DNA from: a virus
Virus record (IMG/VR): IMGVR_UViG_3300032287_001813
Span: 1 to 43,258 of that record
Direction: 5' to 3' (one strand)
Length of the DNA: 43,258 nucleotides
Part shown: one piece after another, positions 1 through 43,258 of the stretch
How the letters are laid out: each line of letters begins with the position of its first letter
Numbering within the stretch: the first letter of the stretch is position 1
Translations under genes and position numbers: made by a program
The notes under the pieces: model-generated
The model's input: only the letters and a program-made list of their open reading frames with translations
Database searches by the model: none
What the model was told of the DNA's origin: nothing

Positions 1-122
1 AAGCGTAATCTAATACATCTACAATAATTCCATAACCGTTTGTAGTTGAAGGATTACTAGAACCCGATGATATTTGGCAATATGTTCTTCCTGTATTGCC
101 AAACGCAGTAACAGTAGATCCA
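1..122. repeat. Left copy of 122-bp terminal direct repeat
   Basis: The first 122 bases recur exactly as the last 122 bases of the window. Both copies lie inside the same minus-strand fibre gene, whose reading frame stays open when the ends are joined. This is the signature of a circular assembly overlap or of terminal redundancy. It is not an internal repeat: joined once, the unique length is 43,136 bp. Confidence 0.95.
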
Positions 123-373
123 TTACTGATTATAGCGTGGCGAGTATAATTAGCACCAGTATCGCTATTAAATTGCAATCCAAAGTAATTAGCGGTTGAT
201 GCAAAACCCAAAATCCTTAATTGGAGGGATTTGTAAGTACCTGCAATAGATGAGAAGGTTACAGATGAGCCAGTTACAGGGTTGTAAGTAGCAATAGATT
301 CAAATGAGTTAGGTGTCCAAGGCGGTGTTAGATGTCCTGATATACCAGATGCAATCACTCCAAGAATAGGCAT
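1..373 (-). CDS. Fibre-like virion protein, N-terminal part (gene crosses the contig junction)
   Basis: The frame starts MPILGVIASGISG and runs off the left edge. Joined to the piece at the right end it gives one 183-residue protein ending LYGIKG. The core (SSVTFSSIAGTYKSLQLR, then FNSDTGANYTRH) is the same beta-rich module as the four genes on the other side of the junction; the first ~25 residues are an extra N-terminal segment. The start codon overlaps the stop of the upstream tail gene (TAATG), suggesting translational coupling. A tail-fibre or receptor-contact role is inferred from position and repetition; no enzymatic motif is visible. Confidence 0.8.
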   Translation of the reverse strand, partial: MPILGVIASGISGHLTPPWTPNSFESIATYNPVTGSSVTFSSIAGTYKSLQLRILGFASTANYFGLQFNSDTGANYTRHAIISNGSTVTAFGNTGRTYCQISSGSSNPSTTNGYGIIVDVLDYA

Positions 374-1383
374 TAGACTATATCCCCCACAATCAACCAA
401 TTGTCGGTGCTTGTTTGGATAAGTGTAGCAGTAGAATACTGAGCGCGTGTTGCTGGCTGATTAGCTGTTGCGCCAGTTGAAACAATAGTTACAGGGCTAG
501 GTGAAGATGCACCAACTACTGTTACGGTTCCTGCACCATATTGAGAAATAGTAATTTGAGTTCCAACAGGTAAAGCTTGTGTAGCGTTAGAGGCAATTGT
601 AGCTGTTACGGCAGAAGCATTAGACAGCGTAACAAGTTTTTGAGCATCACCAGCTACAAATGTATATGTGGTACCTGTTTGGGTATTAATAACTAAATTA
701 GGGTCGTAAGTTGCAGCTGTAGTTTGGGTTGAACCATCTTGAAAAGTAAGGGTTCCATCGACGGCTACAGCAAATTTTTGCGCTCCAGCACTATCATTGA
801 TGCGTAGAGCTTTACCTGTTTGAGATGCAATACCATTAATAGTTAAAGTATTTGCCGCTGTTGCCTGTGCTGTAAAAGCATTTTCGCTTAATTGAGCAAT
901 AGGGCGGGTATCTGTAATATCTCCATCTACAACGGTTGTTTGGTTAGCAGCAACGGCAATAATAGCCAAGCTGATAGAATTATCAGGTACAGCTGGTGCA
1001 ACAGGAGATGCGTTAGGGGTTCCTGTTAAAGCTTGAAAAATTACTTGATTATTAGCTGTTCCGCCGTAATAAGAATCTTGAACCGTTACAACGATTCTGT
1101 CTAAGCGTGGAAGAGTAGTTGAAGCTGTAGCAATAGCTACCGTTGTAGCTGCGTCATTATAGGCAATATAAAAACCTTGATTAGAAGTTTGTGTACCAGC
1201 AATTAAAGCGTGACCTGCGGCAACGGATACTGTCATGGCAGGAGTGGCTGATTGAGATACTTTTAATGAACCGTAATCAGATATGCCTTGCGATTTCCAC
1301 AAAATACCTGTAGTAGTTAAACGATCATTCTCAGCTGGGTGAGAACCGTTTTGCAACCATGATGGGGGGGTTCTTAATGCCAT
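373..1383 (-). CDS. Minor tail / fibre-like structural protein
   Basis: 336 residues. The opening MALRTPPSWLQNGSHPAEND and the following repetitive Ala/Thr/Val-rich stretch resemble minor tail proteins of actinophages. The middle holds a collar-type segment (ALRINDSAGAQKFAVAVDG) like those of phage fibres. The last ~100 residues (TGTTYTFVAGDAQKLVTLSN to WLIVGDIV) match the C-terminal domain of the small collagen-like protein at 16970-17467. The ATG follows GGAG. It sits after the distal tail gene and couples to the fibre array by TAATG. Likely a baseplate-associated appendage; exact role unknown. Confidence 0.75.
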   Translation of the reverse strand: MALRTPPSWLQNGSHPAENDRLTTTGILWKSQGISDYGSLKVSQSATPAMTVSVAAGHALIAGTQTSNQGFYIAYNDAATTVAIATASTTLPRLDRIVVTVQDSYYGGTANNQVIFQALTGTPNASPVAPAVPDNSISLAIIAVAANQTTVVDGDITDTRPIAQLSENAFTAQATAANTLTINGIASQTGKALRINDSAGAQKFAVAVDGTLTFQDGSTQTTAATYDPNLVINTQTGTTYTFVAGDAQKLVTLSNASAVTATIASNATQALPVGTQITISQYGAGTVTVVGASSPSPVTIVSTGATANQPATRAQYSTATLIQTSTDNWLIVGDIV

Positions 1384-12002: not shown

Positions 12003-12848
12003 TTACTCTGTTTCGTTATCAAATAAACCTTGTGTATCTACAACATAAGGTGCAATATCACACATACAGTTCGGATGAACTGGTGGATCGCCATTAGGGA
12101 ATTGCTCACCAATATCTATTGGCGAAGCATCATAGTTTTCTTGACATTCATCGCAAGGGTCTGCGACCAAGTATTCAATTTTCTCTACACCGCTATCGGC
12201 ATAAAGTTGTTTGCTTGCTTCAACTACAGCTCGGCTCATTTCTGTACTAGCTATAGTCAATGCTCGTTCGTCATCGCCAAGGATATATGAAATATCGTCA
12301 GCAATAGCGTTTCTTGTTTCACCCTTATCTAAACCGTAAGCTAAAGCTGTTCCGATTCTATTTAAGGTTGTGTTAGTTAAACCTTGTATTACTATCCTTC
12401 GTTGGTTTAACAAAGCTTGTAATGCGCCAGGAGGTTTTACTAGAGCTGCAGCAGCTCGGTTGCCTGGCTTCCATGTATTCCAATCGGTTTTTAAAGCTCG
12501 CCTCAATTTATCTTTTGTCGGCGCGGCTTTTGTTAAACCTATGGCTTTGGCTATTTCATAATTGGTTAAATCTTCACCTAATATGTAAGCATCCGCATAA
12601 ACCCTGCCTAAAGCGTTATACAGCTTTTCTGAGCTTTTAGAGTTTATGTGAATCTTTGCCCAATCCCTTGCCAATACAGGAGCTAATTTGTATGGATCAT
12701 TAGTTTCTGTATTACCGACAGGGTGATTAGAAGCAAACCAAAAATCAACTATGTCATCAGGCGAGAACATAGCTTCTATGCCTAATTTAATAGAACGGAC
12801 ATGTTTAGCTGCCAACCGCATTTTTAAACGCGTTCTATTGGGTTTCAT
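12003..12848 (-). CDS. MuF-like minor head (head morphogenesis) protein
   Basis: 281 residues from an ATG that overlaps the portal stop (TAATG), preferred over the in-frame ATG ten codons upstream. The C-terminal third is the SPP1 gp7 / Mu F family signature: ASTEMSRAVVEASKQLY, then DPCDECQENYDASPIDIGEQ and PPVHPNCMCDIAPYV with paired cysteines. These proteins associate with the portal inside the capsid and are often ejected with DNA. The N-terminal helical half is less conserved. Confidence 0.85.
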   Translation of the reverse strand: MKPNRTRLKMRLAAKHVRSIKLGIEAMFSPDDIVDFWFASNHPVGNTETNDPYKLAPVLARDWAKIHINSKSSEKLYNALGRVYADAYILGEDLTNYEIAKAIGLTKAAPTKDKLRRALKTDWNTWKPGNRAAAALVKPPGALQALLNQRRIVIQGLTNTTLNRIGTALAYGLDKGETRNAIADDISYILGDDERALTIASTEMSRAVVEASKQLYADSGVEKIEYLVADPCDECQENYDASPIDIGEQFPNGDPPVHPNCMCDIAPYVVDTQGLFDNETE

Positions 12849-14722
12849 TACAACCCCAAATATCTCTCCGCATACCATCTAGCAGATTCAATATCGCCAA
12901 TTCCAACATATTTGTTTAAAACTTCAGCGTAGTCAGGCTCAACTATTTCAAAATTAAATGAACGCTTAAAGTTTCCTTTGCGTATCCATTTTAGGAAAGA
13001 CTTTATCTCTTTAACCGACTTATCTGTATTGTCCTCAGACATAACCTCAACCACATTAGGGGTTGGTTTGCCTGTTTCGGTGGTTGGCTCATCGCCAACA
13101 GTTATTTGATCCTCAACTGGAGTTGCATCATCGCCTGATAAAGCTGAAGCTGTTGCCGCAGTTGTCGCATCAATAATTCCGTCTGGCGACAAGAAGAACA
13201 ATCCTGATCCTGAGTAGAGCATAGGCATATCAGCCTGTGGGGTATCAAGTAATGGTAATCCCATATTGCTTCTAGCTTCATTTACAGTTCTGCCACCGTT
13301 CTTTAATTCAATATCAACTCGGCGGGCTTCTGATTCTGTATCAATCTTTGATTCAAAAAGTATCTTAAATTCTAATTCGCGAGGCATACCTAGATATACA
13401 TAAGACAAGTTAGTTAATTGTCTGCTAATCCACTCAGCTAACGGTTGAATACCAATAGTTTCACCTGACTGAGTTTCGCCTTGTTGTAAGCCTGAGGCAC
13501 CTAACGAACCTGAACCACTAAAGCCAATTTCGCTTGGCAATACGCCAAAATGACCGCAGATAGATGTAATTAAATAATTGTCTAATACATCCTTAAATTT
13601 TTCACCATAGCCATCAAATTGGACTGGGTTCATGCCAGCAGGAAGCAAGCGAGCGCGTTTACGCTGTGCTGTTTGTCCAGCTAAGTCATCGTTAAAAATG
13701 TTTTCATAGGCACGAAGCAACTCAGGGTTATTACCAAAAGTAGCATCGGTAGTAAATAGCAGCTCAGGCAATACGCCATCTGTGTATTCAGCTCTGATCC
13801 ATTGTTGCCGGCGCAAATAAATATCAGCTAGCGGCAAAGCTCGTTCTGTTGGGCTAAATCCGTAAATAGTCCATGTACGGCGGTTTTTAACCAAGTAAGC
13901 CAGCTCATCGGAGGTAAATTCGCCATCAGCATCTTCAACCTCATTAGGAGCCATAAATTCAGATCGTGGAAATCCGAATAAAATCTGTTGAAACGCAGGG
14001 TTTGGTGGCATTGGTCGCATACCGCGATCATCAATTAAAGGTTTGATAGTTGAGCCATCAAGAATTTGCAACCCAAACAAATTTCCATTAACAGCTTTTT
14101 GTGGCCATATAGCCCAAGCGTCAATAACTAAAATCTCTTCTAAAGCTAAGTTAATCCAGTCTGTCCATGTATAGCCATTAGCTTTATCAGGGTTTTCCCA
14201 AAATGAACGAAGTCTGTCAATGTCTTCTGTGTACTTTTGTCTTGCTTGTGCCATAGCTCGAACATGGTCTTTGCCTGATTCTGCAGCTATTTTCTCTGAA
14301 GCGTCATCACTTAGGACAATATCCCAATCCATACCTGTAATTTTGCTTTTAACAACTTCAAGGCATCGGCGAATAATATCTACTTGGTCTGCGGTAGAGC
14401 GCAGAGTCGCAAACGGAATAAGTTTTGTTGGCGTGATATTGATGTTTTGCGCAACTTGGTATTCATAACGGCGTGGGTCTGCGCGACCATCTTCACGAAC
14501 AGGGTTGATAGCTCCTGGAATTAAAGGATTGCCAGGGGTAAAAGGAACTGTTGGCCATACAGGGTTTCTAGGTAATGAAACTGATTGACCGTATTGTTGA
14601 TTCATAATACCTGATCGTTGCACCATTTCTTGTTCAGTCATGGTTACAGAACCAGCAGGGAGATTAGGTGCTTTGTTAATTTCCGCAGCAACGCGTTGTG
14701 CTAGCCTATCGAATAAGCCCAT
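12848..14722 (-). CDS. Portal protein
   Basis: 624 residues. Portal-like regions in order: TPTKLIPFATLRSTADQVDI and IIRRCLEVVKSKITGMDWDI (residues ~95-135), the wing-domain EEILVIDAWAIWPQK, the stem-region segment YLRRQQWIRAEYTDG, then KFKDVLDNYLITSICGHFGV and LPSEIGFSGSGSLGASG, typical of portals in phages of Gram-positive hosts. The C-terminus is a variable acidic tail with a basic end (SFLKWIRKGNFKRSFNFE). AAGGAG precedes the ATG. The dodecameric portal is the DNA channel and terminase docking site. Confidence 0.9.
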   Translation of the reverse strand: MGLFDRLAQRVAAEINKAPNLPAGSVTMTEQEMVQRSGIMNQQYGQSVSLPRNPVWPTVPFTPGNPLIPGAINPVREDGRADPRRYEYQVAQNINITPTKLIPFATLRSTADQVDIIRRCLEVVKSKITGMDWDIVLSDDASEKIAAESGKDHVRAMAQARQKYTEDIDRLRSFWENPDKANGYTWTDWINLALEEILVIDAWAIWPQKAVNGNLFGLQILDGSTIKPLIDDRGMRPMPPNPAFQQILFGFPRSEFMAPNEVEDADGEFTSDELAYLVKNRRTWTIYGFSPTERALPLADIYLRRQQWIRAEYTDGVLPELLFTTDATFGNNPELLRAYENIFNDDLAGQTAQRKRARLLPAGMNPVQFDGYGEKFKDVLDNYLITSICGHFGVLPSEIGFSGSGSLGASGLQQGETQSGETIGIQPLAEWISRQLTNLSYVYLGMPRELEFKILFESKIDTESEARRVDIELKNGGRTVNEARSNMGLPLLDTPQADMPMLYSGSGLFFLSPDGIIDATTAATASALSGDDATPVEDQITVGDEPTTETGKPTPNVVEVMSEDNTDKSVKEIKSFLKWIRKGNFKRSFNFEIVEPDYAEVLNKYVGIGDIESARWYAERYLGL

Positions 14723-14737
14723 TGTTCTCCTTAATTA

Positions 14738-15409
14738 TTAACGAACCCAAATCATTCCAACATCGGCTGTTGGTCGTAGGTTTGCTATTTTCCAACCGCC
14801 TTCAATCCATTCATCAGAAGTTTCTTGATGCCAAGCATATAGTTTGTTTGTGTTGTCCTCATCTAGCCCAAACCAAATTCCAGGTTGTTCTAAATGTTGT
14901 TCTATGTATTGTGGGCCAACTTCTCTATATCCTAGCGAATAAAGATAGTTTAATTGTTGCTCATGCTCTTTGATGGTTTCAAATGTCCATTCAAAGGTTA
15001 TGGTTCCATATTTCTTTGTCATGCCATTAAAGACAGACCATTCAGCGCCTTCTACATCTATTTTAATTAGATCAGGTTCACCATAAATATCCGCCAATGT
15101 ATCTATGGTTATTGAGTTTACTTCTATCTCACGAAACTCTTTGCCAACATAAGGCATTGTTTCATTGGTTAGCCACTCTTTGTTTGTAGTAGATAATCCA
15201 TCCTCAACGCATTCATAAAACTTAATGCGCTCGCCATTTTTATTAGATACGGCATATTTTAAAGGAACTACATCATTACTATAAACAAAGTTTTTGACTA
15301 ACTCTTTATATGTGCGCGGAGCTGGTTCCAAGGCAATCACTTTATAGCCCTGTTCTAGTCCTGCTCTTGTTGCATCGCCTCGGTTTGCACCTATATCAAA
15401 CAGTAGCAT
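14738..15409 (-). CDS. FkbM-family SAM-dependent methyltransferase
   Basis: 223 residues from an ATG preceded by AGGA; a TTG five codons earlier is also open. The SAM-binding loop is LLFDIGANRGDATRAGLEQG followed by YKVIALEPAP; the family motif LIKIDVEGAEWSVFNGM lies near residue 120, and the C-terminus ends with an acidic Trp-rich segment. FkbM enzymes methylate hydroxyls, often on sugars. Together with the preceding TPR and GH130-like genes and the collagen-like genes, it suggests modification of a virion glycan. The substrate is unknown. Confidence 0.8.
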   Translation of the reverse strand: MLLFDIGANRGDATRAGLEQGYKVIALEPAPRTYKELVKNFVYSNDVVPLKYAVSNKNGERIKFYECVEDGLSTTNKEWLTNETMPYVGKEFREIEVNSITIDTLADIYGEPDLIKIDVEGAEWSVFNGMTKKYGTITFEWTFETIKEHEQQLNYLYSLGYREVGPQYIEQHLEQPGIWFGLDEDNTNKLYAWHQETSDEWIEGGWKIANLRPTADVGMIWVR

Positions 15410-15959
15410 TTTTAATCCTGTCAAGGTTATGGAGAACTGATGCTTTATATTCGGCAGCTATGTCCATACTAGCTAACTTGTTTAATAAATCTATGCTTTC
15501 AGCTTTACGACCCACCCAATAAGCACTTACAGCTTTTTCAAACTCTAAGCAATAAGTTCCATAATAACCAACATCTGTAGGCAATTGTGGGTAGCTGCCT
15601 TGGTGTAGCCCTATCTCAGCGTATGTATAAGCTTCTTGCCATTGAGATAAACGCTCATGGAATTGAGCTAGTAAAAAGTAGCCTTCCGGTCTTTCAGGCC
15701 AATAAGCAATAGCCTGAAGCAGACAGTTGCTTACTGTATGCAACCTGTCATTTTGGTCATTGAAACAATGAGCCATTTTAAGTAAAGAAGCGTAAACCAT
15801 AGGGTCATTTACGGTTTGGCTATATTCGGCTGTTCGTAAATAAAAAGATACGGCTGAAGCTGTTTGATTTAACCGTTCATATTCAACAGCTACATTAAAA
15901 TTTAAAGTAGGGTCAAAAGGTTTTTTAGATAGCTCGACCACCAGCTCTTCAATTTTCAT
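15396..15959 (-). CDS. TPR protein resembling glycosyltransferase-associated repeats
   Basis: 187 residues of tetratricopeptide-like helices (NFNVAVEYERLNQTASAVSF, DPMVYASLLKMAHCFNDQND). The segment PERPEGYFLLAQFHERLSQW, then AYTYAEIGLHQGSYPQLPTD and EFEKAVSAYWVGRKAESIDL, closely follows the pattern in the TPR region of glycosyltransferase-2/TPR proteins. No glycosyltransferase domain of its own is visible, so it may be a scaffold for a host enzyme or a relic. It overlaps both neighbours, consistent with a three-gene translational unit. Confidence 0.65.
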   Translation of the reverse strand: MKIEELVVELSKKPFDPTLNFNVAVEYERLNQTASAVSFYLRTAEYSQTVNDPMVYASLLKMAHCFNDQNDRLHTVSNCLLQAIAYWPERPEGYFLLAQFHERLSQWQEAYTYAEIGLHQGSYPQLPTDVGYYGTYCLEFEKAVSAYWVGRKAESIDLLNKLASMDIAAEYKASVLHNLDRIKNATV

Positions 15960-16950
15960 AGCTGAGTGCCTCTAAAATCATGTCCTCTACCACTAGCTTA
16001 GGAACACGCAATACAAAGGCTGCATTATCCTGAAAACCAAAGCTCAACAGTAAGTCGCCTTTATGTGTAGCTGCTCCTACGCAAAACTCTACGCGGGCAT
16101 CTAAAAAGGAGAAGGCTTTAGATAATCCAACCAAGTTTAGCTGGTCATCCCATAGTAGTAAACGATGGCGATAAATTGCGTCTTTTTGTTTTAGGTAGTT
16201 CTTAAACAGATTAACTTCGTGGGTAATGTTGATATACATATTGCCCCAACGAATAACTTGTGAGCTACCTCGTTGGTCTGCCGGCGCAGGTATTGTTTGT
16301 TTTACGAACACCTGTTCGCATTTAGCTGTATTAGGGTCTGCATAAACCAGCTCAGTAGGCATTGACCATTTAATAAAATGATAGGGCTTATCCATTATTG
16401 GAACCCAATTCTTTTCGCAATAAGAAGTATTTGGGTCAGGCGCGGGTATCCGTATTCTGTTTACTTCTTTTACAACCCAATTAGCTTTATCTATCTCTAT
16501 TCGGCTGTATTCCATGCGACCGACACCATTTGTTGTGGTATCTCGCCTAACACCTACAAGATAGTAGTTGCCATCCCATTTCATTAGGCGACAATCTTCT
16601 TCGCCAACAAATTCCCATATAGGTTCTACATCTAAAGCTGAGGTATCAACTTTGGCGTAATTAGTCATAACTAAATCATCATTTAGCTGACAAATGTAAT
16701 TGACAGTAATTAACCTATGGTCTTTCTCAGGGTGTAAATATGATAATGGCCCAAAGCGACTAGGAAACTTTTGTTCATTCTCTGCGTGATACAGCGTGTA
16801 ATTAACATGGCGCAAATTAACTAATATGTCGCCATCGTCATCTATGAAGATAGATGGGTTCATTAGTCCTGTACCAGCTGTTAAACCTTTTGGTATAACT
16901 AATGGGGCTAACTTACCGCCTTGTGCTACCGCCTGTTGCACTAAGTTCAT
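15949..16950 (-). CDS. GH130-like five-bladed beta-propeller protein
   Basis: 333 residues. Propeller signatures include MNPSIFIDDDGDILVNLRHV, EEDCRLMKWDGNYYLVGVRR, YCEKNWVPIMDKPYHFIKWS, GSSQVIRWGNMYINITHEV and RVEFCVGAATHKGDLLLSFG. These resemble the blade ends of GH130 glycoside phosphorylases and of propeller domains fused to glycosyltransferases. The acidic residues in DDDGD, EEDCR and near ARVEFCVG are the candidate active-site positions. It starts the glycan-type cassette after the collagen-like genes. Enzyme activity versus a glycan-binding role cannot be settled here. Confidence 0.6.
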   Translation of the reverse strand: MNLVQQAVAQGGKLAPLVIPKGLTAGTGLMNPSIFIDDDGDILVNLRHVNYTLYHAENEQKFPSRFGPLSYLHPEKDHRLITVNYICQLNDDLVMTNYAKVDTSALDVEPIWEFVGEEDCRLMKWDGNYYLVGVRRDTTTNGVGRMEYSRIEIDKANWVVKEVNRIRIPAPDPNTSYCEKNWVPIMDKPYHFIKWSMPTELVYADPNTAKCEQVFVKQTIPAPADQRGSSQVIRWGNMYINITHEVNLFKNYLKQKDAIYRHRLLLWDDQLNLVGLSKAFSFLDARVEFCVGAATHKGDLLLSFGFQDNAAFVLRVPKLVVEDMILEALSYEN

Positions 16951-16969
16951 TGGGCAAACTTATAGGTAA

Positions 16970-17467
16970 TTAGCTAATATCGCCAACGATGGTGAAGGTG
17001 TTTGATGCGGTGCAAATAACGCTACAAGCTGAGTATTGCGCCCTCAATTTAGGGGCTGCTGAAGTTGCACCAGTTGATGTAATGGTGACACCTGCTCCAA
17101 TTGCAAAGGTTACTTGTCCTGCTCCAATTTGTTGAACATTTATTACATCATTAGCTGCAAATACAGATGGAGGCACAGTTATAGTAATTGCACTCGCGTT
17201 GCTTGCGGTTACAAGTCTATTTACATCACCAACAACAAGGGTATAAGTAGTTCCTGTTTGAGCATTAAAACCTGAGATACCGCCACCTGCGGCACCAGTT
17301 GTACCTGTTGTGCCTTGTGAACCTGTTAAACCTTGTGATCCAGTTAAGCCTTGGACACCTTGAGTTCCAGTTAAGCCTTGAACGCCTTGCGTACCTTGGC
17401 TACCAGTTGTGCCTTGTAAACCTTGTGGGCCTACTACATTGGGATTGGGGGTAATATCAACGGCCAT
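16970..17467 (-). CDS. Short collagen-like virion protein
   Basis: 165 residues. After a short lead (MAVDITPNPNVV) come about 16 Gly-X-Y triplets ([19 protein letters not shown]...) rich in Gln and Thr. A ~95-residue beta-rich C-terminal domain follows (TGTTYTLVVGDVNRLVTASN to ASNTFTIVGDIS), which recurs at the end of the tail protein at 373-1383. Such domains often trimerise phage collagen-like fibres. The ATG overlaps the stop of the preceding gene (TAATG). Head placement is inferred from the neighbourhood. Confidence 0.75.
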   Translation of the reverse strand: MAVDITPNPNVVGPQGLQGTTGSQGTQGVQGLTGTQGVQGLTGSQGLTGSQGTTGTTGAAGGGISGFNAQTGTTYTLVVGDVNRLVTASNASAITITVPPSVFAANDVINVQQIGAGQVTFAIGAGVTITSTGATSAAPKLRAQYSACSVICTASNTFTIVGDIS

Positions 17468-17799
17468 TATGAAATCTCGCTTCCAAATGCAGTAAATGAG
17501 CTTGTACCATTTGTAGAATAAACCGTAACAACATCTGTTGCACCGACAGTAATACCACCTGTATAGGTAAATGTTGCTCCAGCATTAAGGCTTAATCCAA
17601 ATACAATGTAATGCTGATTAGCCAATACTGCACCTGCTGGCCGAACCGCAATACGAATTACATCTGCGGTTGTTGTATTTGTATTAACTACATTGATGCT
17701 AGAAATAATAGTCTGAGTAGCTGAAGGTACGGTGTAAAGACTTGTGGGCGTTACTGCCGATGGTGCTGATTGACCCAAAACTTTATATGTTGTTGGCAT
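17467..17799 (-). CDS. Small beta-sandwich virion protein
   Basis: 110 residues with the pattern MPTTYKVLGQSAPSAVTPTS, LYTVPSATQTIISSINVVNT, RIAVRPAGAVLANQHYIVFG, GITVGATDVVTVYSTNGTSS and a terminal FTAFGSEIS. Proteins of this shape are common in environmental phage genomes beside head or fibre genes, usually annotated only as structural. GGAG precedes the ATG. Lying between two collagen-like genes, it is a candidate capsid decoration or fibre-attachment protein. Confidence 0.65.
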   Translation of the reverse strand: MPTTYKVLGQSAPSAVTPTSLYTVPSATQTIISSINVVNTNTTTADVIRIAVRPAGAVLANQHYIVFGLSLNAGATFTYTGGITVGATDVVTVYSTNGTSSFTAFGSEIS

Positions 17800-17814
17800 T
17801 ATTCTCCGTTTTCT

Positions 17815-20325
17815 TTACATTCCACCGAGCATAAGAATATCTGGTAAAGCTGTTGCAGCTGATCCGATAGTTCCTTGCGCACCTTGGATACCAGTTGTTC
17901 CTTGGGTGCTTTGAATTCCTTGAATTCCTTGCAGACCAAGTAATCCTTGAATACCCTGAATTCCTTGCGTACCAACCAAACCTTGTACGCCAGTTGTGCC
18001 TTGGGTACCTTGTAAACCAGTTTCGCCAGTTAAACCTTGCGTTCCAATTAGACCTTGAACACCCTGTGAACCAATTATGCCTTGCGATCCAGTTTGTCCT
18101 TGAGTGCCTGTTTCACCTTGCACACCAAGAAGTCCTTGAACTCCCTGTGTACCTTGTAAACCAATTAATCCCTGTGAACCTGTAGCTCCTTGAGTTCCTT
18201 GGATACCGTTTAAACCTTGGCTACCTGTTGTTCCTTGAGTACCGTTAATACCATCGGTACCTTGGCTACCAGTTAAACCTTGGATTCCTTGTGTGCCTTG
18301 CGTGCCTTGCGCACCATTTAATCCATCGGTTCCTTGTAATCCTTCTAAACCTTGAGTTCCTTGAGTGCCTTGTGCGCCAACAGTTCCTTGGCTACCAGTT
18401 TGACCTTGTGAGCCAACTAAACCTTGAACACCTTGTGTACCTTGGGTTCCATCAAATCCTTGCAGACCTTCATGTCCTTGCAATCCTTGAGTACCCTGAA
18501 TACCAGCTAAGCCCTGTAATCCAGTTTGACCTTGGCTTCCCTCATGGCCTTGTAAACCTTCTAAGCCTTGAGCGCCTGTATGACCTTGGATTCCCTCAGT
18601 ACCCTGTGAGCCGGTAATGCCTTGTGAGCCAGTTTCGCCCTGTACACCTTGGGTGCCTTGAACGCCTTGCAAGCCTTCTAGTCCTTGAACTCCTTGAGTT
18701 CCTTGCGTTCCTTGCGTTCCTTGGGTTCCAGTTTCACCCTGTATGCCAGTTGTACCTTGTACGCCTTGGGTGCCTTGTGAGCCAATAGCTCCTTGTGCGC
18801 CTGTAGCTCCTGGGGTACCAGCTACAAAAGTAATTAAGCTGACATCGTGGTTGTTAGCAAATCCTGTTGTTCCTGTTCCACCTGATCCAAGAAGTGTTAC
18901 AGGAAAATTCCACCAAGTTGTATTATCTGTTGAAGTTCCAGTTATTTCCCAGTTTTGATAATTAGCGGGAACATTTGCATCTTGAATAACTAATCTATCG
19001 CCAACTTTGAGAGTTTGAAGAATTGCATCAATGTTTAATTGAGCATTACCACCTTGAATAGAAGTGTCTGATACATGAAGTGCTGTTGCACTTGTTTGAC
19101 TAGCAAAGTTATCGTAACCAATTCTACCGTCTGCTGGAGTGCCAGTAATATTAGTTATTTTGTAGCTAAAAATAGATGTAGATGGCGCAGCTTGACCTTC
19201 AATACCTTGCACACCTTGGGTACCGTAAATTCCTTGAATACCCTGCAAACCTTGGATGCCTTGCAATCCATTGGTTCCTTGAGCGCCTTCTAATCCTTGG
19301 ATTCCGTTAGTTCCCTGAACGCCTTGCACGCCTTGAGTTCCTTGCGAACCTACAATACCTTGGGTGCCTTGTAATCCCTCAAGTCCTTGTAATCCTTGCT
19401 CGCCTTGGATACCGATTAAACCTTGTGAACCTGTTTCGCCTTGGATACCAGCTAAACCTTGGGTGCCATCATGCCCTTGGATGCCTTCTAGTCCTTGCGC
19501 ACCTATAGCTCCTTGAGAACCTGTGGTTCCTTGGGTACCGTCATGGCCTTGTATTCCTTGCGTACCCTGCAATCCAGTTGCCCCTTGGATGCCGGCAACA
19601 CCTTGGCTACCTGTTGCTCCTTGGATACCGATAAGACCCTGAATACCCTGAGCTGGTTCAATGCCTTGAATACCTTGTAAGCCCTGAACGCCTTGAGTTC
19701 CCTGTAAGCCCTCTAAACCTTGTGTGCCTTGTGTTCCAGCTACGCCTTGGGTGCCATTGGTGCCTTGTACACCTTGTAAACCTTCTAGCCCTTGTAAGCC
19801 TTGTGCGCCCTGTATGCCTGTGGTTCCTTGGCGACCCTGAATACCTTGTGTGCCTTGGCTACCTGTAGCTCCTTGGGTACCTGTAGTGCCTTGGCGACCT
19901 TGAACTCCCTGAACACCCTGAGTGCCTTGAATTCCTGTGGCACCTTGGATTCCTTGGCTGCCAATAGCTCCTTGAATACCAATTAAGCCCTGTGCGCCTG
20001 TAGCGCCTTGTGAGCCTACAATTCCTTGGCTGCCTGTGGTGCCTTGATTACCAATTAGACCTTGTGCGCCCTGAATGCCAGCTAAACCCTGAGAACCAAC
20101 AGCGCCTTGGATGCCCTGTGCGCCATCAATACCTTGGATACCCTGAATGCCAGTTAATCCTTGGACACCTTGCAAACCAGCTGTTCCTTGGACACCCTGA
20201 GTACCTTGAGAGCCGGTTGTTCCTTGTGGGCCGGCAGGGCCGCCACCTGTTATAGCTACGGTGGTTGTGGGTTCTCTAACTACGACAATGTTGTCGCAGC
20301 AATCTTGGCAATTGCAGCTACTCAC
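17815..20325 (-). CDS. Long collagen-like virion protein
   Basis: 836 residues. A Cys-rich N-terminus ([16 protein letters not shown]) leads to two Gly-X-Y tracts, roughly residues 30-377 and 500-820, separated by a ~120-residue globular insert ([20 protein letters not shown] to [13 protein letters not shown]). Y positions are mostly Gln with Thr; Pro is nearly absent. Two register breaks occur (near GIEPAQ and GIQSTQ). The start is GTG, overlapping the previous gene by 8 bases. Phage collagen-like proteins form trimeric head or tail fibres. The cassette that follows suggests the fibre may be glycosylated (inference). Confidence 0.85.
17860..20240 (-). repeat. Collagen-coding DNA repeat (two tracts)
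   Basis: The plus strand shows hundreds of near copies of the 9-base unit CCTTGNNNN, in two tracts split by the non-repetitive insert at about 18,820-19,195. The repetition encodes Gly-X-Gln triplets. Such arrays can expand or contract by recombination and are prone to assembly collapse, so true length may vary between virions. Confidence 0.8.
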
Positions 20326-20674
20326 GCGTTGTATTCGCAGACACTTCGATGGTTCCCTGAATTAAGCGGGTAATTACGGTTGGCTCAGCTGGTGAGTACA
20401 GCTCTAGGTCGTATGTGTATCTCTGAGGCGCTAAAGCAGCTGTTTGCTCATTTGTAGCGTGAATAGACACTAAGCCAGTAGGGCCAGTTATAGCTAGGCC
20501 GTTATTCTCGGTTGTAAGGTTTAAAGCTACGGTGCGAGCTAGGGGGGAAGTTCTGAGCTGTAGAGCTGCTGTAAAGCCGCTTATATCAATTGGGTCGCCA
20601 GCTACATCTTCCCAAGTTACATTTAAGAACCAGTCTGCCCCTTGGTCAATAACGGTGTTGTAGGTACTGGCCAT
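20318..20674 (-). CDS. Conserved structural-type protein before the collagen gene
   Basis: 118 residues from an ATG preceded by AGGAG (an earlier in-frame start inside the terminase gene is less likely). The pattern [60 protein letters not shown] and [13 protein letters not shown] is a recurrent beta-rich phage domain of unassigned function found near head and fibre genes. It lies between the large terminase and the collagen-like gene and overlaps the latter by 8 bases. Confidence 0.65.
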
Positions 20675-20681
20675 GATTCTC

Positions 20682-22028
20682 CTAAAGTAAAGTAGCGCAT
20701 TTATCACAATGTGTATTACGAGCTGGGTTGGGCATTCGACAGCTGGGGCAAAATTTAGCTAGCTGCCCTAAAGCTGTCATGGTTCCTGAGCTTTCGCTCA
20801 GCTCAGTCAAAGCCCATACCATCGCGTCTAATCTGTCCGGCGAATTGGGGTCTTCAGGTGTCCATTCGCACATTTGGTCTTCCAGCTCAGCGTAATAGCC
20901 AACCATGTGGCAGCGGTCTTGCTCCATTAAAGCAGCTATAGGTTCAGCTCGAACCCGCTTGCCTCGGCTAGCTGTAACCTTTTTGACCGGTATATTCACA
21001 TTTACTTGCTGCAAAAGGTGGATAACTAGGTCGCCGCCATTATTGACCTCAGCTACCATACGGTCAGCTTTATGCTTGTCATAAGCAGCTACAGCCTTTG
21101 TAGCCCACTCTTGGGGCGAGGCTTTGAGCGTGTCGTCAGCTAAAATATAATAATGGCCGTCTGCGGTCATGCCGGCTGTAACTATGCCGGTGAAATCTGA
21201 ATCTTCCCCGCTTGTAACAGCTGGATCAACCCCCACCACAATACGCATAAGCGGCGGTAAATCAGCTGGTTTGATGCGGTTTTTCTCGATTAGAGCGCGG
21301 CTCCATAGAGCGCCTGGGTTGTCATCTAGGATTTCTCCGTATAGCTCTTGACGGCCTAAGCGTGTTCCAGCGTACCTATTTTGCAGCTCAAGTAGAGCTG
21401 AAGCTGATAAGTTAGCTGCATTATCAAAGGTTGAGCCGCGTGTAATGATGGTGCTTTCACGCTCAATTAAGCTCTTAATTATCTTAGTAGGCTTAGGGGT
21501 AGTCGTAATTACCGTCTGTGGGCGCTCGCCCAAGCGTAAGCCGAATTGCAGCTGATTCCAGCTATCCTCGTATTGCCAAGCAGCTAATTCGTCTGCCCAA
21601 GCAAAATGGTTCTGATAGCCGCGAAACTTGTCCGGCTCTTCAGCGCCAAAAGACTGAATGATGGAGCCATTTTTAAGGATAATACGGCCTAAAACCTTGT
21701 TATAGTCTTCTATTGCGTCATAATCACGCAGAATGCTTAAAATCCCGCTTACGCCTTCTAAAGCTACATTTCGGCAGTCGGCTACGGTTCGAGCTACGAT
21801 AGCGCAGCGTACTTCGTCATTTCTGACCGCTTTAGCAGCTAGCCATTCAGCCCCTAGGCGTGTCTTGCCAAATCCTCGGCCAGCCATAACCAGCCAATTG
21901 TTCCATTCGCCCTCAGGCGGTAGCTGGTTTGTCCTCGCTAGACCCTTGCTCGGATGAAACCATTTGAGGTATCTCAACGCGGCTAGGTCTGGATTCAAGC
22001 TCTGAGGTAAGTCTAACGATTGCTTCAT
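20682..22028 (-). CDS. terL: Terminase large subunit
   Basis: 448 residues. The ATPase domain has Walker A GRGFGKT (residues 50-56), a Walker B-like FAWADELAAW near residue 145, and a coupling motif TTTPKPTK near 175. The nuclease domain begins VVGVDPAVTSGEDSDFTGIV near 258. A C-terminal zinc ribbon (FCPSCRMPNPARNTHCDKC) is an added feature. The N-terminal NQLPPEGEWNNWLVMAGRG pattern is typical of one large TerL clade. It overlaps the small subunit by 116 bases. It packages DNA through the portal and cuts concatemers. Confidence 0.95.
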   Translation of the reverse strand: MKQSLDLPQSLNPDLAALRYLKWFHPSKGLARTNQLPPEGEWNNWLVMAGRGFGKTRLGAEWLAAKAVRNDEVRCAIVARTVADCRNVALEGVSGILSILRDYDAIEDYNKVLGRIILKNGSIIQSFGAEEPDKFRGYQNHFAWADELAAWQYEDSWNQLQFGLRLGERPQTVITTTPKPTKIIKSLIERESTIITRGSTFDNAANLSASALLELQNRYAGTRLGRQELYGEILDDNPGALWSRALIEKNRIKPADLPPLMRIVVGVDPAVTSGEDSDFTGIVTAGMTADGHYYILADDTLKASPQEWATKAVAAYDKHKADRMVAEVNNGGDLVIHLLQQVNVNIPVKKVTASRGKRVRAEPIAALMEQDRCHMVGYYAELEDQMCEWTPEDPNSPDRLDAMVWALTELSESSGTMTALGQLAKFCPSCRMPNPARNTHCDKCATLL

Positions 22029-22639: not shown

Positions 22640-22813
22640 TCAAATTTTGCAACGCAATCTTGGCTTTGATGCCTTGCGTTTGTCATAAGCTTTTTGTAAT
22701 CCATTGATAGAGTATAAGCCCTTTTTGGATTTTAACGAATCCTCTTTTGCCCAACGATAAATTGTGCTAACAGATACTTTAAATAGCTTTGCCGCTTGTC
22801 TTGCAGTTATCAA
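22640..22813 (-). CDS. Mini helix-turn-helix protein
   Basis: 57 residues starting at TTG that overlaps the methyltransferase stop. The opening LITARQAAKLFKVSVSTIYR followed by WAKEDSLKSKKGLYS is a MerR/excisionase-type winged HTH; the rest is basic (KAYDKRKASKPRLRCK). Such proteins act as DNA-binding regulators or directionality factors. No integrase is present, so a regulatory role, perhaps at the adjacent gap before the packaging genes, is more likely. Confidence 0.65.
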   Translation of the reverse strand: MITARQAAKLFKVSVSTIYRWAKEDSLKSKKGLYSINGLQKAYDKRKASKPRLRCKI

Positions 22814-24156
22814 AACAAAAACTCTTCTTTAGATTTAGAAGCGTAAGCTATTCTTGCTTCAGCTATTTTAATGTATTCAGCGTCTTGTTCTATGCCAATA
22901 AAATCAAATCCTTCTAATACAGCTGCTTTACCTGTACTGCCACTTCCCATAAATGGATCAAGGACTGTTCCGTTAGGTGGTGTTACAAGCCTACATAGAT
23001 AACGCATTAGATCGGTAGGTTTAACTGTTGGATGAAAGTTTTTAGCTGGTGCTTTTATTGAGCCATAAGCATCGCCAATGCTAGTAAGCCCACCACCGCC
23101 TGTGGTTTGTTTTGTTTCAAAATCATCAAGTCCTTCGTTTCTATCGCGTTTGCTTGTTTTAGCTGAATAAAAGAATCGGGCGGCAGATGTATTTAAGCCA
23201 TCGTCATAAACTGCGCCCGCAAAACCGCCACCAAACATCGCATTATCACTTGATTCTTGCGAAGCGTTAGTTCTTGATGTTGCACCCTTGACAGACGGAA
23301 ACAACTCAACAACTTCATCTGACCCATCGTGTATTACATTTGCTGGCCAACGGCCTGTGTGATTTTCGTAAGTTGATGTATCGCTACCACGATCAGGTTC
23401 TCCTCCTGCAAAAGTTCCTTTTGGTGCATGATGAGTTGAAACTATTTCATTACCAACCCTTGTCGCATCAATATTTAACCCACCTGTGCCATGCGTAAGC
23501 ACATTTTCTACAACCGTACCAATTAAAGGTTTGCGAGCAACAACAATTGGTTCGTGAGCTGGTTTTAAAGCTGTTCCCCAACCTTGCCATTTTTTAGCTT
23601 CTTCTGTAGCAGGTGCTGTAATTGGCACATCTTTTGACATTTTGTTTTCTGATTGCGAATAAATTGATGAAGCTGGATTTTCTATTTTACCAACAATTTC
23701 ACGCTCGGCACCTGCCGCTTTATCAATTGCTTTATCTATGTTTAATGATTTAGGAAACCCTGAGCCGTATAGCCACATAATCTGATCGCGTATTTCAAAT
23801 CCAGCATCTTCAATACCAGCTGTCATGCGGTGATAGGTTCTTGCGCTAGAAAAGCTGAGCAAGTGTCCTCCTGGCTTTAATATTCTAAAAGCTTCTTTTG
23901 CCCATTCATGGCTAAATTGTTGAAAGCTTAAGCCGGCGTTGTAGCTAGTATCGTATGTGCCGGCATGTTGGTTAGCTGAACGAGAATTGTCTTTTGTATG
24001 GTCTAAACCTTGAACGCCTCTAGCTAACATTCTTGCGTTATCCCAAGCTTTACCCATAAAGCTAATGCCGTATGGTGGGTCGGTAACAATAGAATCAATG
24101 CTGTTTTCAGGCAGCTCTTTCATAGCTTCTATGCAGTCAGCGTTAATTAACCTCAT
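22810..24156 (-). CDS. DNA amino-methyltransferase (N6-adenine or N4-cytosine)
   Basis: 448 residues. Motif IV DPPYGISFMGKAWD occurs near residue 26 and the SAM-binding motif I DPFMGSGSTGKAAV near residue 398, the order of beta-class N6/N4 methyltransferases. KPGGHLLSF and FHPTVKPTDLMRYLCRLV are further family motifs. Between them lies a long variable target-recognition region (~residues 140-370). No cognate nuclease is apparent, so it is probably a stand-alone protector against host restriction. It overlaps both neighbours by 4 bases. Confidence 0.9.
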   Translation of the reverse strand: MRLINADCIEAMKELPENSIDSIVTDPPYGISFMGKAWDNARMLARGVQGLDHTKDNSRSANQHAGTYDTSYNAGLSFQQFSHEWAKEAFRILKPGGHLLSFSSARTYHRMTAGIEDAGFEIRDQIMWLYGSGFPKSLNIDKAIDKAAGAEREIVGKIENPASSIYSQSENKMSKDVPITAPATEEAKKWQGWGTALKPAHEPIVVARKPLIGTVVENVLTHGTGGLNIDATRVGNEIVSTHHAPKGTFAGGEPDRGSDTSTYENHTGRWPANVIHDGSDEVVELFPSVKGATSRTNASQESSDNAMFGGGFAGAVYDDGLNTSAARFFYSAKTSKRDRNEGLDDFETKQTTGGGGLTSIGDAYGSIKAPAKNFHPTVKPTDLMRYLCRLVTPPNGTVLDPFMGSGSTGKAAVLEGFDFIGIEQDAEYIKIAEARIAYASKSKEEFLF

Positions 24157-26770: not shown

Positions 26771-26875
26771 CTATTTTTTGCTTTTGCAATTACACTCAAT
26801 TAACTCTAAACAATCCGTACAAATGGCATGTGGGCCATCGTCATTTCCGCAATTTACGCAGGGTTTATTGTCCAA
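26771..26875 (-). CDS. Zinc-ribbon microprotein after the C5 methyltransferase
   Basis: 34 residues from TTG overlapping the end of the methyltransferase frame: DNKPCVNCGNDDGPHAICTD and CLELIECNCKSKK. The spacing CxxC, CxxC, CxC is that of a small treble-clef or ribbon. It resembles the other zinc microproteins in this genome. Weak start context; it could be a chance frame, but the ordered cysteines make that less likely. Confidence 0.5.
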   Translation of the reverse strand: MDNKPCVNCGNDDGPHAICTDCLELIECNCKSKK

Positions 26876-28073
26876 TTTGTTCCACCATGTTCCTTATTAT
26901 CCACTCAACCACCGGTACAGCTACAGCGTTGCCCATTTGCTTATATCTATGCGTGTCGGCTTGCCCAGCTGTCCAACCCTCAGGAAATCCTTGTAAACGC
27001 TCGCATTCGGTAGGGGTCAAACGCCTAACTGATGATTTTTCAGCTATAAAAATTTGAGCGTGGTGAGATTGGGGAGAAGGTCTGAGTGCGCCTAAAGCTA
27101 AAGCTGTATCGGTAGGGGTTGCGCTAAAAGTATTAGCTTTAGCATCTTCCCTTACCGAATAAGCCACCATAGGGGTATTGTTTCCGCCTGTTCCCATCAT
27201 GCTAGTTAAAGTGTTGGATGTATTGCCTTGTATTCTAACGCCATCTGAGCGATGTGGGTCGAAAACAATTACATGACTTGATTTGCTTGCATTTGCCCTT
27301 AAAGCGTTTTTTATTTTTGCTTCTGCCCAATTTTCTTCAAATGCAGATTTTGGTTCAAAAATTATAGCTTTATTTTCAACCAAATCATCGGCAGATATGC
27401 CTTTGTAATCTCTCGCAGCTAAAGTTCCTGCGATTGACCTTTCATCACCGTTTGTAATGCCTCTAGCAAAGGTGGAGGTAGAACCTTTCCTCGGCGAATT
27501 GCTCTTCTGTGAATACCCTCTGCGGCCTTCGGCGATAGCGAGTATTTCCGCAGGTGTTCGCCCTGAATCTCCAAGACATCCGACAATGAAGATTCTACGG
27601 CGTCTTTGGGGTACTCCGAAGTACTGAGCGTCAAGAATCCTGTATGCGATCCCATACCCGCGCTCAACCAACGCCCCAATGACGGTTCCCAAATCTTGTC
27701 CTCCGTTTGATGACAATAAGCCAGGGACATTTTCGAGGATGAACCACTTGGCTTTTGTTTCATCGAGGAGGCGACATATTTCCCAAAATAATCCTGAGCG
27801 TTTTCCAGCAAGACCTGTACGCTTTCCTGCAACTGATAAGTCTTGGCAGGGGAATCCACCGACAATAACTCCATCTGAATTAAATCCGAGCTTGAAGAGT
27901 TGTTCACCTGTTACCTCACATATATCTGTTAAATGGGTTGTGTTAGGGAATTGTCTTTCCAATACGCCTCTTGCGTGTTTATCAATTTCAACTGAGGCAG
28001 TTACATCAATGCCATTTCGCGTAAGGGCAAGGTCAAAACCCCCTACCCCCGCGAACAAACTTACTGCCTTCAC
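26865..28073 (-). CDS. DNA cytosine-5 methyltransferase
   Basis: 402 residues from GTG behind GGAGG. Motif I SLFAGVGGFDLALTRNG, motif IV GGFPCQDLSVAG with catalytic Cys76, motif VI ENVPG (from residue 114), motif VIII QRRRRIFIVG, motif IX RRLTPTECERLQGFP and motif X YKQMGNAVAVPVVEWI are all intact. The region before motif IX is the target-recognition domain. No paired restriction gene is obvious, so an anti-restriction role is likely. A second long frame runs inside it (27419-27907). Confidence 0.95.
   Translation of the reverse strand: MKAVSLFAGVGGFDLALTRNGIDVTASVEIDKHARGVLERQFPNTTHLTDICEVTGEQLFKLGFNSDGVIVGGFPCQDLSVAGKRTGLAGKRSGLFWEICRLLDETKAKWFILENVPGLLSSNGGQDLGTVIGALVERGYGIAYRILDAQYFGVPQRRRRIFIVGCLGDSGRTPAEILAIAEGRRGYSQKSNSPRKGSTSTFARGITNGDERSIAGTLAARDYKGISADDLVENKAIIFEPKSAFEENWAEAKIKNALRANASKSSHVIVFDPHRSDGVRIQGNTSNTLTSMMGTGGNNTPMVAYSVREDAKANTFSATPTDTALALGALRPSPQSHHAQIFIAEKSSVRRLTPTECERLQGFPEGWTAGQADTHRYKQMGNAVAVPVVEWIIRNMVEQIGQ
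27419..27907 (-). CDS. Overlapping ORF nested in the methyltransferase gene
   Basis: 162 codons on the same strand but in another frame, starting GTG (or ATG at codon 12). Segments LTLSTSEYPKDAVESSLSDV and YSLSPKAAEGIHRRAIRRGK, then VLPPPLLEALQTV, look like a short phage protein I recall as a stand-alone family beside or instead of such methyltransferases, usually with YLSxxAxxGILRRAxxRGKxLP. This recollection is not checked. It could alternatively be an open shadow of the conserved VPQRRRRIF region. Confidence 0.4.
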   Translation of the reverse strand: MNNSSSSDLIQMELLSVDSPAKTYQLQESVQVLLENAQDYFGKYVASSMKQKPSGSSSKMSLAYCHQTEDKIWEPSLGRWLSAGMGSHTGFLTLSTSEYPKDAVESSLSDVLEIQGEHLRKYSLSPKAAEGIHRRAIRRGKVLPPPLLEALQTVMKGQSQEL

Positions 28074-42957: not shown

Positions 42958-43258
42958 TTATCCTTTGATTCCGTAAAGGGCTATTGAATTACCAGTTGAA
43001 TAAGTACCATCTGTTAAAACTGTAATGCTAGTAATTGCATTAGTATTTACCCATAAATGACTCCACAAAGACATTTCACCTGAGCCATTAGCATCTAAAC
43101 CGCTAGATGAGCGAACTGTTTTATTCTTTGTACTTGAAGCGTAATCTAATACATCTACAATAATTCCATAACCGTTTGTAGTTGAAGGATTACTAGAACC
43201 CGATGATATTTGGCAATATGTTCTTCCTGTATTGCCAAACGCAGTAACAGTAGATCCA
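42958..43258 (-). CDS. Fibre-like module protein 5, C-terminal part (continues at the left end)
   Basis: This frame enters from the right edge and ends LTDGTYSTGNSIALYGIKG. Joined across the 122-base repeat to the frame that starts at 373 it makes one uninterrupted 183-residue gene. The closing YGIKG is the family tail. The AAAGGA of these codons is the ribosome site for the next array gene. Confidence 0.8.
   Translation of the reverse strand, partial: GSTVTAFGNTGRTYCQISSGSSNPSTTNGYGIIVDVLDYASSTKNKTVRSSSGLDANGSGEMSLWSHLWVNTNAITSITVLTDGTYSTGNSIALYGIKG
43137..43258. repeat. Right copy of 122-bp terminal direct repeat
   Basis: Exact copy of bases 1-122 in the same orientation. See the left copy. 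Because the shared gene reads through when one copy is removed, the repeat is best taken as the overlap of a circular or terminally redundant genome. Confidence 0.95.

What the first reader, a model, noticed from the sequence alone, without database searches (positions are those of the whole stretch)
14738..20325. Collagen-like fibres next to a glycan-type gene cassette
Two Gly-X-Y proteins (836 and 165 residues) and a small beta-sandwich protein are followed by a GH130-like propeller, a TPR protein like those attached to glycosyltransferases, and an FkbM methyltransferase, all between terminase and portal. Known: bacterial spore collagen BclA carries O-glycans on Thr, and FkbM enzymes methylate sugars. 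Inferred: the phage collagen is decorated with a methylated glycan, a virion-surface system I do not know described for such phages.
Basis: partly seen in the sequence, partly recalled or inferred. Interest (0 to 1): 0.78.

Follow-up and report, generated by a model that had tools for sequence, protein, structure and literature searches.

The report
Phage collagen fibre with sugar-decorating cassette
A bacterial virus encodes collagen-like fibres next to three genes that look like a small workshop for attaching and methylating a sugar, probably mannose; the same gene group turns up beside collagen genes in several unrelated water-borne viruses, which suggests that these viruses sugar-coat their fibres.

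Summary
Between terminase and portal, on one strand, lie LtfC-like, an 836-aa collagen, a small all-beta protein, a 165-aa collagen, a five-bladed propeller, a TPR protein and an FkbM methyltransferase. The propeller is a highly divergent relative of GH130/GT108 mannosyl enzymes (AF2 pLDDT 91.5; top PDB folds are GH130 phosphorylases and GT108 MPTs) and keeps the catalytic Asp. It belongs to an abundant, apparently phage-specific family, nearly always followed by the TPR gene. In relatives the TPR or propeller protein is fused to GT17, GT2, GT25, methyltransferase or mannose-isomerase cupin domains, so this is glycan assembly. All 21 fully flanked siphophage loci have collagen within 4 kb. Of 35 complete terminase-portal intervals, 31 have both collagen and cassette, 4 have neither, none is discordant. 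Linked collagens are nearly Pro- and Lys-free, Thr- and Gln-rich, unlike other viral collagens. However, only 2 of 80 collagen-bearing viral contigs carry the propeller, and 13 of 48 sampled carrier contigs show no collagen. Best reading: a cytoplasmic cassette that builds a short methylated, probably mannose-type glycan on Thr-rich collagen fibres. The chemistry is untested.

The parts
20682..22028 (-). terminase large subunit (upstream border; C-terminal zinc-ribbon-like cysteines)
   Evidence: PF03237 2.7e-26, PF17289 2.5e-17
20318..20707 (-). LtfC-like beta-sandwich protein, possible fibre-assembly chaperone
   Evidence: PF23926 27.4 bits, cut-off 27; phrog_3304 L-shaped tail fiber protein assembly 5e-9; precedes the collagen in most siphophage relatives
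17815..20325 (-). 836-aa collagen-like fibre protein; 222 triplets, Thr-rich and Gln-rich, almost free of Pro and Lys
   Evidence: PF01391 1.5e-106; composition
17467..17799 (-). 110-aa all-beta protein, probably a virion component; closest folds are capsid cement and decoration proteins, weakly
   Evidence: AF2 pLDDT 88.9, 8 strands; best PDB matches include the trimeric cement protein of phage KHP40, E 1.7e-3, TM 0.64
16970..17467 (-). 165-aa protein: 17 Gly-X-Y triplets and a C-terminal domain shared with minor tail proteins
   Evidence: PF01391 5.3e-8; phrog_18179, phrog_8780; 244 phage records, mostly Gordonia phages annotated minor tail protein
15949..16950 (-). GH130/GT108-superfamily five-bladed propeller, predicted mannosyl (or related hexosyl) transferase or phosphorylase
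15396..15959 (-). TPR protein, predicted docking subunit; overlaps the propeller gene by 11 nt
   Evidence: PF07719 7.5e-5, phrog_13126 3.1e-6; short overlap conserved in relatives, 80 of 80 loci of set 1
14738..15424 (-). FkbM-family O-methyltransferase (a start at 15409 is also possible)
   Evidence: PF05050 4.3e-18; TIGR01444 84.3 bits; DIGANRG and KIDVEGAE motifs in the sequence
12848..14722 (-). portal protein (downstream border)
   Evidence: PF04860 1.6e-10; phrog_2662 1.8e-51

Best explanation
The three soluble enzymes are a late-expressed fibre-glycosylation cassette. The propeller, a GH130/GT108-type transferase or phosphorylase, puts a mannose or similar hexose on (or extends a first sugar on) Thr, less often Ser, side chains of the Gly-X-Y fibre before or during assembly in the cytoplasm. 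The TPR protein docks the enzyme to the repetitive substrate, as TPRs do in protein O-GlcNAc transferase. FkbM caps the sugar with an O-methyl group. The glycan would stabilise a triple helix that has almost no proline and few charged residues, and would change or shield the fibre surface. Shown: genes, folds, conserved catalytic Asp, phage-wide linkage, fusions to glycan enzymes, and joint presence and absence with collagen. Inferred: sugar identity, acceptor residue, order of steps and purpose.
For: Fold GH130/GT108, with N31, R47, E118-D119, H244, Y260 and D308 aligned to GH130 active-site positions (roles from PMC4599007). The propeller is followed by the TPR gene in 80/80 and 70/82 loci, usually overlapping. 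Fusions to GT17, MT24, GT2, GT25, FkbM and mannose-isomerase cupin. Collagen within 4 kb in 21/21 fully flanked siphophage loci; 31 both, 4 neither, 0 discordant intervals; relatives L175 and L198 have a 100-aa stub with almost no triplets and no cassette. Carriers with collagen 35/48 against 1/50 random viral contigs. Linked collagens: median Pro 0.3-0.6%, Thr 27-31%, Lys 0, against Pro 10.6%, Thr 16% in 78 control viral collagens. Threonine glycosylation is a recognised collagen stabiliser (cited in PMC3368898). No membrane-like segment in any cassette protein.
Against: No chemistry is known. Most phage collagens lack the cassette (78 of 80), so collagen as such does not need it. 13/48 carriers have no detected collagen, and marine T4-like loci L214-L217 have none within the stretch read. 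Known GH130/GT108 enzymes act on sugar acceptors, not on Thr; this genome shows no other Pfam glycosyltransferase among the large ORFs scanned. A few linked collagens of set 2 are Thr-poor (L133, L135, L137). Loci within a set are related, so the counts overstate independence.
Confidence: 0.6

Rival explanations
1. The cassette changes the host's surface glycans (O-antigen or capsule) during infection, for superinfection exclusion or receptor change, and merely sits near fibre genes in the host-recognition region.
For: This is how glycosyltransferases near tail-fibre genes of pelagimyophages were read (PMC7029224). Some marine carriers have GH130-TPR beside a nucleotidyltransferase/mannose-isomerase gene and no visible collagen. 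FkbM and GT25 domains also occur in LPS biosynthesis.
Against: Joint presence and absence with collagen in one locus; adjacency in three phage backgrounds and either orientation; a distinctive composition of the linked collagens; no flippase or membrane protein in the cassette; location inside the head and packaging operon.
Confidence: 0.2
2. The glycan goes on another virion protein (the 110-aa protein, the major capsid protein or a tail protein), and collagen is only a neighbour or a scaffold.
For: Capsid glycosylation is known in mycobacteriophages Che8 and Rita (as stated in PMC11256854; Freeman et al. 2023). The 110-aa protein is Thr/Ser-rich. Some carriers lack visible collagen.
Against: The 110-aa protein is missing near the cassette in many loci that keep collagen and cassette, such as L005, L007 and L011. 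L175 keeps terminase, LtfC and portal but lacks collagen and cassette.
Confidence: 0.13
3. The propeller is a degradative enzyme (hydrolase or phosphorylase) that releases mannose from host or storage polysaccharide as an auxiliary metabolic gene.
For: Most characterised GH130 enzymes degrade mannosides (own knowledge; PMC4599007).
Against: Fusion to GT17-methyltransferase in one chain (L152) and GT2-TPR (L476); the positions that carry Glu and Asn in the hydrolase-type GH130 sequences carry neither here, and H244 aligns with the phosphate-binding His; placed among late structural genes.
Confidence: 0.05

Closest known systems
GT108 (Leishmania MPT mannosyltransferase/phosphorylases) and GH130 mannoside phosphorylases
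   Same: Five-bladed propeller, catalytic Asp, -1 subsite Asn and Asp, phosphate-site His conserved
   Different: About 13% identity to the PDB matches; the window protein is below any family threshold; linked to TPR and FkbM genes, next to collagen, in phages
Mimivirus L230, collagen lysyl hydroxylase and glucosyltransferase (PMC9614988)
   Same: Virus-encoded enzyme that glycosylates a virus-encoded, proline-poor collagen
   Different: L230 acts on hydroxylysine with a GT domain related to collagen galactosyltransferase GLT25D1; the phage collagens are almost Lys-free and the cassette has no hydroxylase
Bacillus BclA exosporium collagen
   Same: Thr-rich collagen; the BclA glycan includes a 2-O-methylated sugar (anthrose; abstract of PMC6222408)
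   Different: Rhamnose-based glycan made by cellular enzymes; the linked phage collagens are GTQ/GIQ-type, not GPT-type
Mycobacteriophage virion glycosylation (Che8, Rita; as stated in PMC11256854)
   Same: Phage-encoded enzymes put glycans on virion proteins
   Different: Glycan on the major capsid protein; classical glycosyltransferases; no collagen or propeller mentioned
Giant-virus propeller proteins (Pithovirus LCPAC, Solivirus, Satyrvirus, Indivirus; BFVD predicted models)
   Same: Same fold with TM up to 0.77; some carriers annotated as fucosyltransferase, WcaK-like pyruvyl transferase or LicD proteins
   Different: 18-23% identity for the pithovirus proteins, 12-20% for the others; function unknown
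E. coli prophage collagens EPclA/EPclB (PMC3368898)
   Same: Phage collagen fibre proteins
   Different: Pro-rich (48% of X positions), unglycosylated when recombinant; presence of a cassette was not tested here

Membership tests
CAZy GH130 / GT108 | five-bladed beta-propeller fold | tested here: met
   AF2 pLDDT 91.5; GH130 and GT108 structures rank first, E 6.6e-8, TM 0.60-0.66 for the best
CAZy GH130 / GT108 | catalytic Asp (D104 UhgbMP, D131 BF0772, D142 BT3780) | tested here: met
   D119 invariant in 83 members, aligned with the catalytic Asp; N31 and D308 too
CAZy GH130 / GT108 | phosphate-binding basic residues (UhgbMP R150, R168, K212, H231; numbers recalled, positions checked) | tested here: inconclusive
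   H244 aligns with H231; R227 lies two columns from K212; K180 and K194 match only by eye
CAZy GH130 / GT108 | sequence score above family threshold (Pfam PF04041, NCBIfam) | tested here: not met
   no match for the window protein; only 42 of 83 relatives match at E<=1. Hence a divergent family of the superfamily, not filed as a GH130 member
CAZy GH130 / GT108 | activity on beta-mannosides | not testable with these tools
   needs enzymology
FkbM methyltransferase | curated model score and SAM-binding motif | tested here: met
   TIGR01444 84.3 bits, cut-off 37.7; PF05050 66.5 bits, cut-off 22.7
FkbM methyltransferase | methylates a sugar in this phage | not testable with these tools
   needs assay
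Collagen-like protein | long uninterrupted Gly-X-Y runs | tested here: met
   runs of 65, 51 and 101 triplets; PF01391 348.6 bits
Collagen-like protein | forms a triple helix and is in the virion | not testable with these tools
   needs circular dichroism and virion proteomics
Mimivirus L230-type collagen modification | lysines in the collagen and a lysyl hydroxylase | tested here: not met
   2 Lys in 836 residues; no hydroxylase in the block
Virion glycosylation system | sugar on a virion protein | not testable with these tools
   needs mass spectrometry

The most novel reading that the evidence does not exclude
A viral beta-propeller enzyme of the GH130/GT108 fold, working with a TPR subunit, directly O-mannosylates threonines of a nearly proline-free collagen. 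That would be a protein glycosyltransferase of a fold not known for this, which replaces proline hydroxylation as the way to stabilise collagen, and its fold is shared with giant viruses.
Probability: 0.2. Interest if true: 0.9.

Novelty: new variant of a known kind. Interest (0 to 1): 0.7.

Why it matters
If right, it shows how viruses make stable collagen without proline hydroxylation, adds a new route to virion glycosylation with consequences for adsorption and host range, and offers a small soluble three-gene tool for decorating recombinant collagen. It also makes the old question of how proline-poor viral collagens stay folded directly testable.

Tried and rejected
Single-sequence hhalign of the family against two cellular GH130 proteins gave nothing useful; a MAFFT alignment and the fold comparison were used instead. 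A genome-contig scan for cellular relatives found nine loci in metagenome bins; those with enough flank carry phage genes (terminase, sheath or fibre genes) or more cassette domains, so no cellular homologue was established. A search for relatives of the distant actinophage protein (L003) gave only two more loci. A first random 16-mer sample was too small. Lysine-based collagen glycosylation was rejected because lysine is nearly absent. A gtr-like membrane seroconversion cassette was rejected because no cassette protein has a membrane-like segment. No paper combining phage, collagen and FkbM, or a phage tail with a relevant GH130, was found. Several genome-search runs failed on list limits or handle type.

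Full report
Observation. They are packed head to tail: LtfC-like and collagen overlap by 8 nt, the 110-aa and 165-aa genes abut, propeller and TPR overlap by 11 nt, TPR and FkbM overlap, and FkbM ends 15 nt before the portal gene. The block therefore reads as part of one late structural operon. The window ends share an identical 122-bp repeat, so this looks like a complete genome of about 43.1 kb with a siphophage-type tail (tape measure, Dit-like). No other glycosyltransferase was found among the large ORFs scanned.

Identity of the propeller. The window protein alone matches no GH130 model. Of 83 diverse relatives, 42 match Pfam GH130 weakly (best 4.8e-6). The AF2 model (pLDDT 91.5, pTM 0.90) retrieves GH130 beta-mannoside phosphorylases and the Leishmania GT108 enzymes MPT-1, MPT-2 and MPT-4 first. 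N31, R47, E118-D119, H244, Y260 and D308 are invariant and align with GH130 positions; the roles of most are known: substrate Asn, +1 Arg, +1 Glu with the catalytic Asp, phosphate His, and the Asp that holds O4/O6 (PMC4599007; the His role from own knowledge). H244 is His as in phosphorylases, where the hydrolase-type cellular sequences aligned here have Asn; near the K212 position the phage proteins have Arg where those sequences have Glu. A synthetic or phosphorolytic enzyme is thus likelier than a hydrolase. The other phosphate-site residues could not be aligned with confidence.

Distribution. There were nine hits in metagenome bins; those with enough sequence carry phage genes, so no cellular member was established. 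The best matches in a library of viral predicted structures are another uncultured phage protein and giant-virus proteins (Pithovirus LCPAC, Solivirus, Satyrvirus, Indivirus), several in long proteins annotated as sugar-related enzymes.

What the cassette does. The TPR gene follows the propeller in 80 of 80 loci of set 1 (relatives of the window protein) and in 70 of 82 of set 2 (relatives of the cyanophage and actinophage proteins), mostly with a short overlap. In set 2 and elsewhere the partner proteins are fused: TPR with GT17, GT2, GT25, MT24, FkbM or radical-SAM domains; propeller-GT17-MT24 in one chain (L152) and propeller with radical SAM (L154); GT2-TPR-propeller in one chain (L476); TPR with a mannose-6-phosphate isomerase cupin (L216), and the same cupin with a cytidylyltransferase domain right after the TPR gene (L215). 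This is glycan assembly, and the cupin plus the fold point to mannose. GT25 is the family of collagen galactosyltransferase and of mimivirus L230, though also of LPS enzymes.

Link to collagen. In set 1, all 21 loci with at least 4 kb on both sides have a collagen gene within 4 kb, on the same strand in some phages and convergent in others. In set 2 the figure is 17 of 44. A collagen sits next to or near the propeller in Synechococcus phage DSL-LC02, in many T4-like contigs and in a GC-rich phage found only by a collagen pattern (L407). Among terminase relatives, 31 complete terminase-portal intervals hold both, 4 hold neither and none is discordant; collagen-only contigs all end before the portal; the 'neither' rows fall in separate parts of the tree, among them a pair nested with the window. 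Contigs of at least 30 kb in the terminase-picked set: 5 both, 6 neither. In L175, whose terminase is 77% identical, and in L198, the collagen is a 100-aa stub followed by another fibre-like gene, and the cassette is gone. Random viral contigs hold collagen above the cut-off in 1 of 50 cases, carriers in 35 of 48; restricted to contigs of 20 kb or more this is 0 of 18 against 33 of 46 (counted from the same tables).

The reverse does not hold. Of 80 viral contigs picked only for a long Gly-X-Y pattern, 2 carry the propeller. The linked collagens are a special class: median proline 0.3-0.6%, lysine 0, threonine 27-31% of X and Y, glutamine in 52-56% of Y positions, against 10.6%, 0.4%, 16% and 11% in 78 controls. 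All 53 set 1 collagens and 14 of 25 set 2 collagens meet a joint cut (Pro below 6%, Thr above 15%, Gln in Y above 40%), against 2 of 78 controls. The cut was chosen after seeing the data. A few set 2 collagens are Thr-poor (L133, L135, L137), which does not fit Thr as the only acceptor.

Mechanism. E. coli prophage collagens are Pro-rich and unglycosylated when recombinant, and Thr glycosylation is cited as a known stabiliser of collagen (PMC3368898). A collagen with almost no proline and little charge would need another source of stability; sugar on threonine is the natural candidate and the cassette supplies the enzymes. The steps from gene to sugar are inferred.

Weak points. Relatedness inflates the counts. 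Contigs are fragments. Thirteen carriers without collagen remain, although near-identical pairs such as L132/L136 and L142/L143 show that some are only truncated. Marine T4-like loci L214-L217 show no collagen in the stretch read, so other fibres or a host glycan may be served there. No step of the chemistry has been tested.

Noticed in passing
window 1-122 and 43137-43258: Identical 122-bp repeat at both ends: the genome is probably complete (circular assembly or terminal repeat).
   Followed up: yes
window 22810-24156 and 26865-28073: Two DNA methyltransferases, N6/N4 type and C5-cytosine type, in one small phage genome.
   Followed up: no
window 20682-22028: The terminase ends in a CPSC...CDKC zinc-ribbon-like tail (weak PF12773 match), which I have not seen as a standard terminase feature.
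   Followed up: no
window 373-1383: A probable distal tail or head protein shares the C-terminal domain of the 165-aa collagen protein (phrog_8780, phrog_21978).
   Followed up: no
L154:747-2642 and L125:8950-11805: Radical-SAM/SPASM domains fused to the propeller and to the TPR-FkbM protein: a possible radical step on the same substrate.
   Followed up: no
L214, L215, L216, L217: T4-like phage contigs in metagenome bins with clusters of several radical-SAM-like genes (CxxxCxxC motifs) beside the propeller-TPR pair.
   Followed up: no
BFVD models A0A481Z9G3, A0A3G5AFP7, A0A3G5AG18, A0A1V0SDN7: Giant-virus proteins share the propeller fold, several in long proteins annotated as sugar-related enzymes.
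   Followed up: partly
L396, L403, L419, L358, L384, L413: Viral Gly-X-Y proteins of other composition classes, lysine-aspartate-rich or serine-rich and proline-free, in viral contigs picked by a Gly-X-Y pattern.
   Followed up: no
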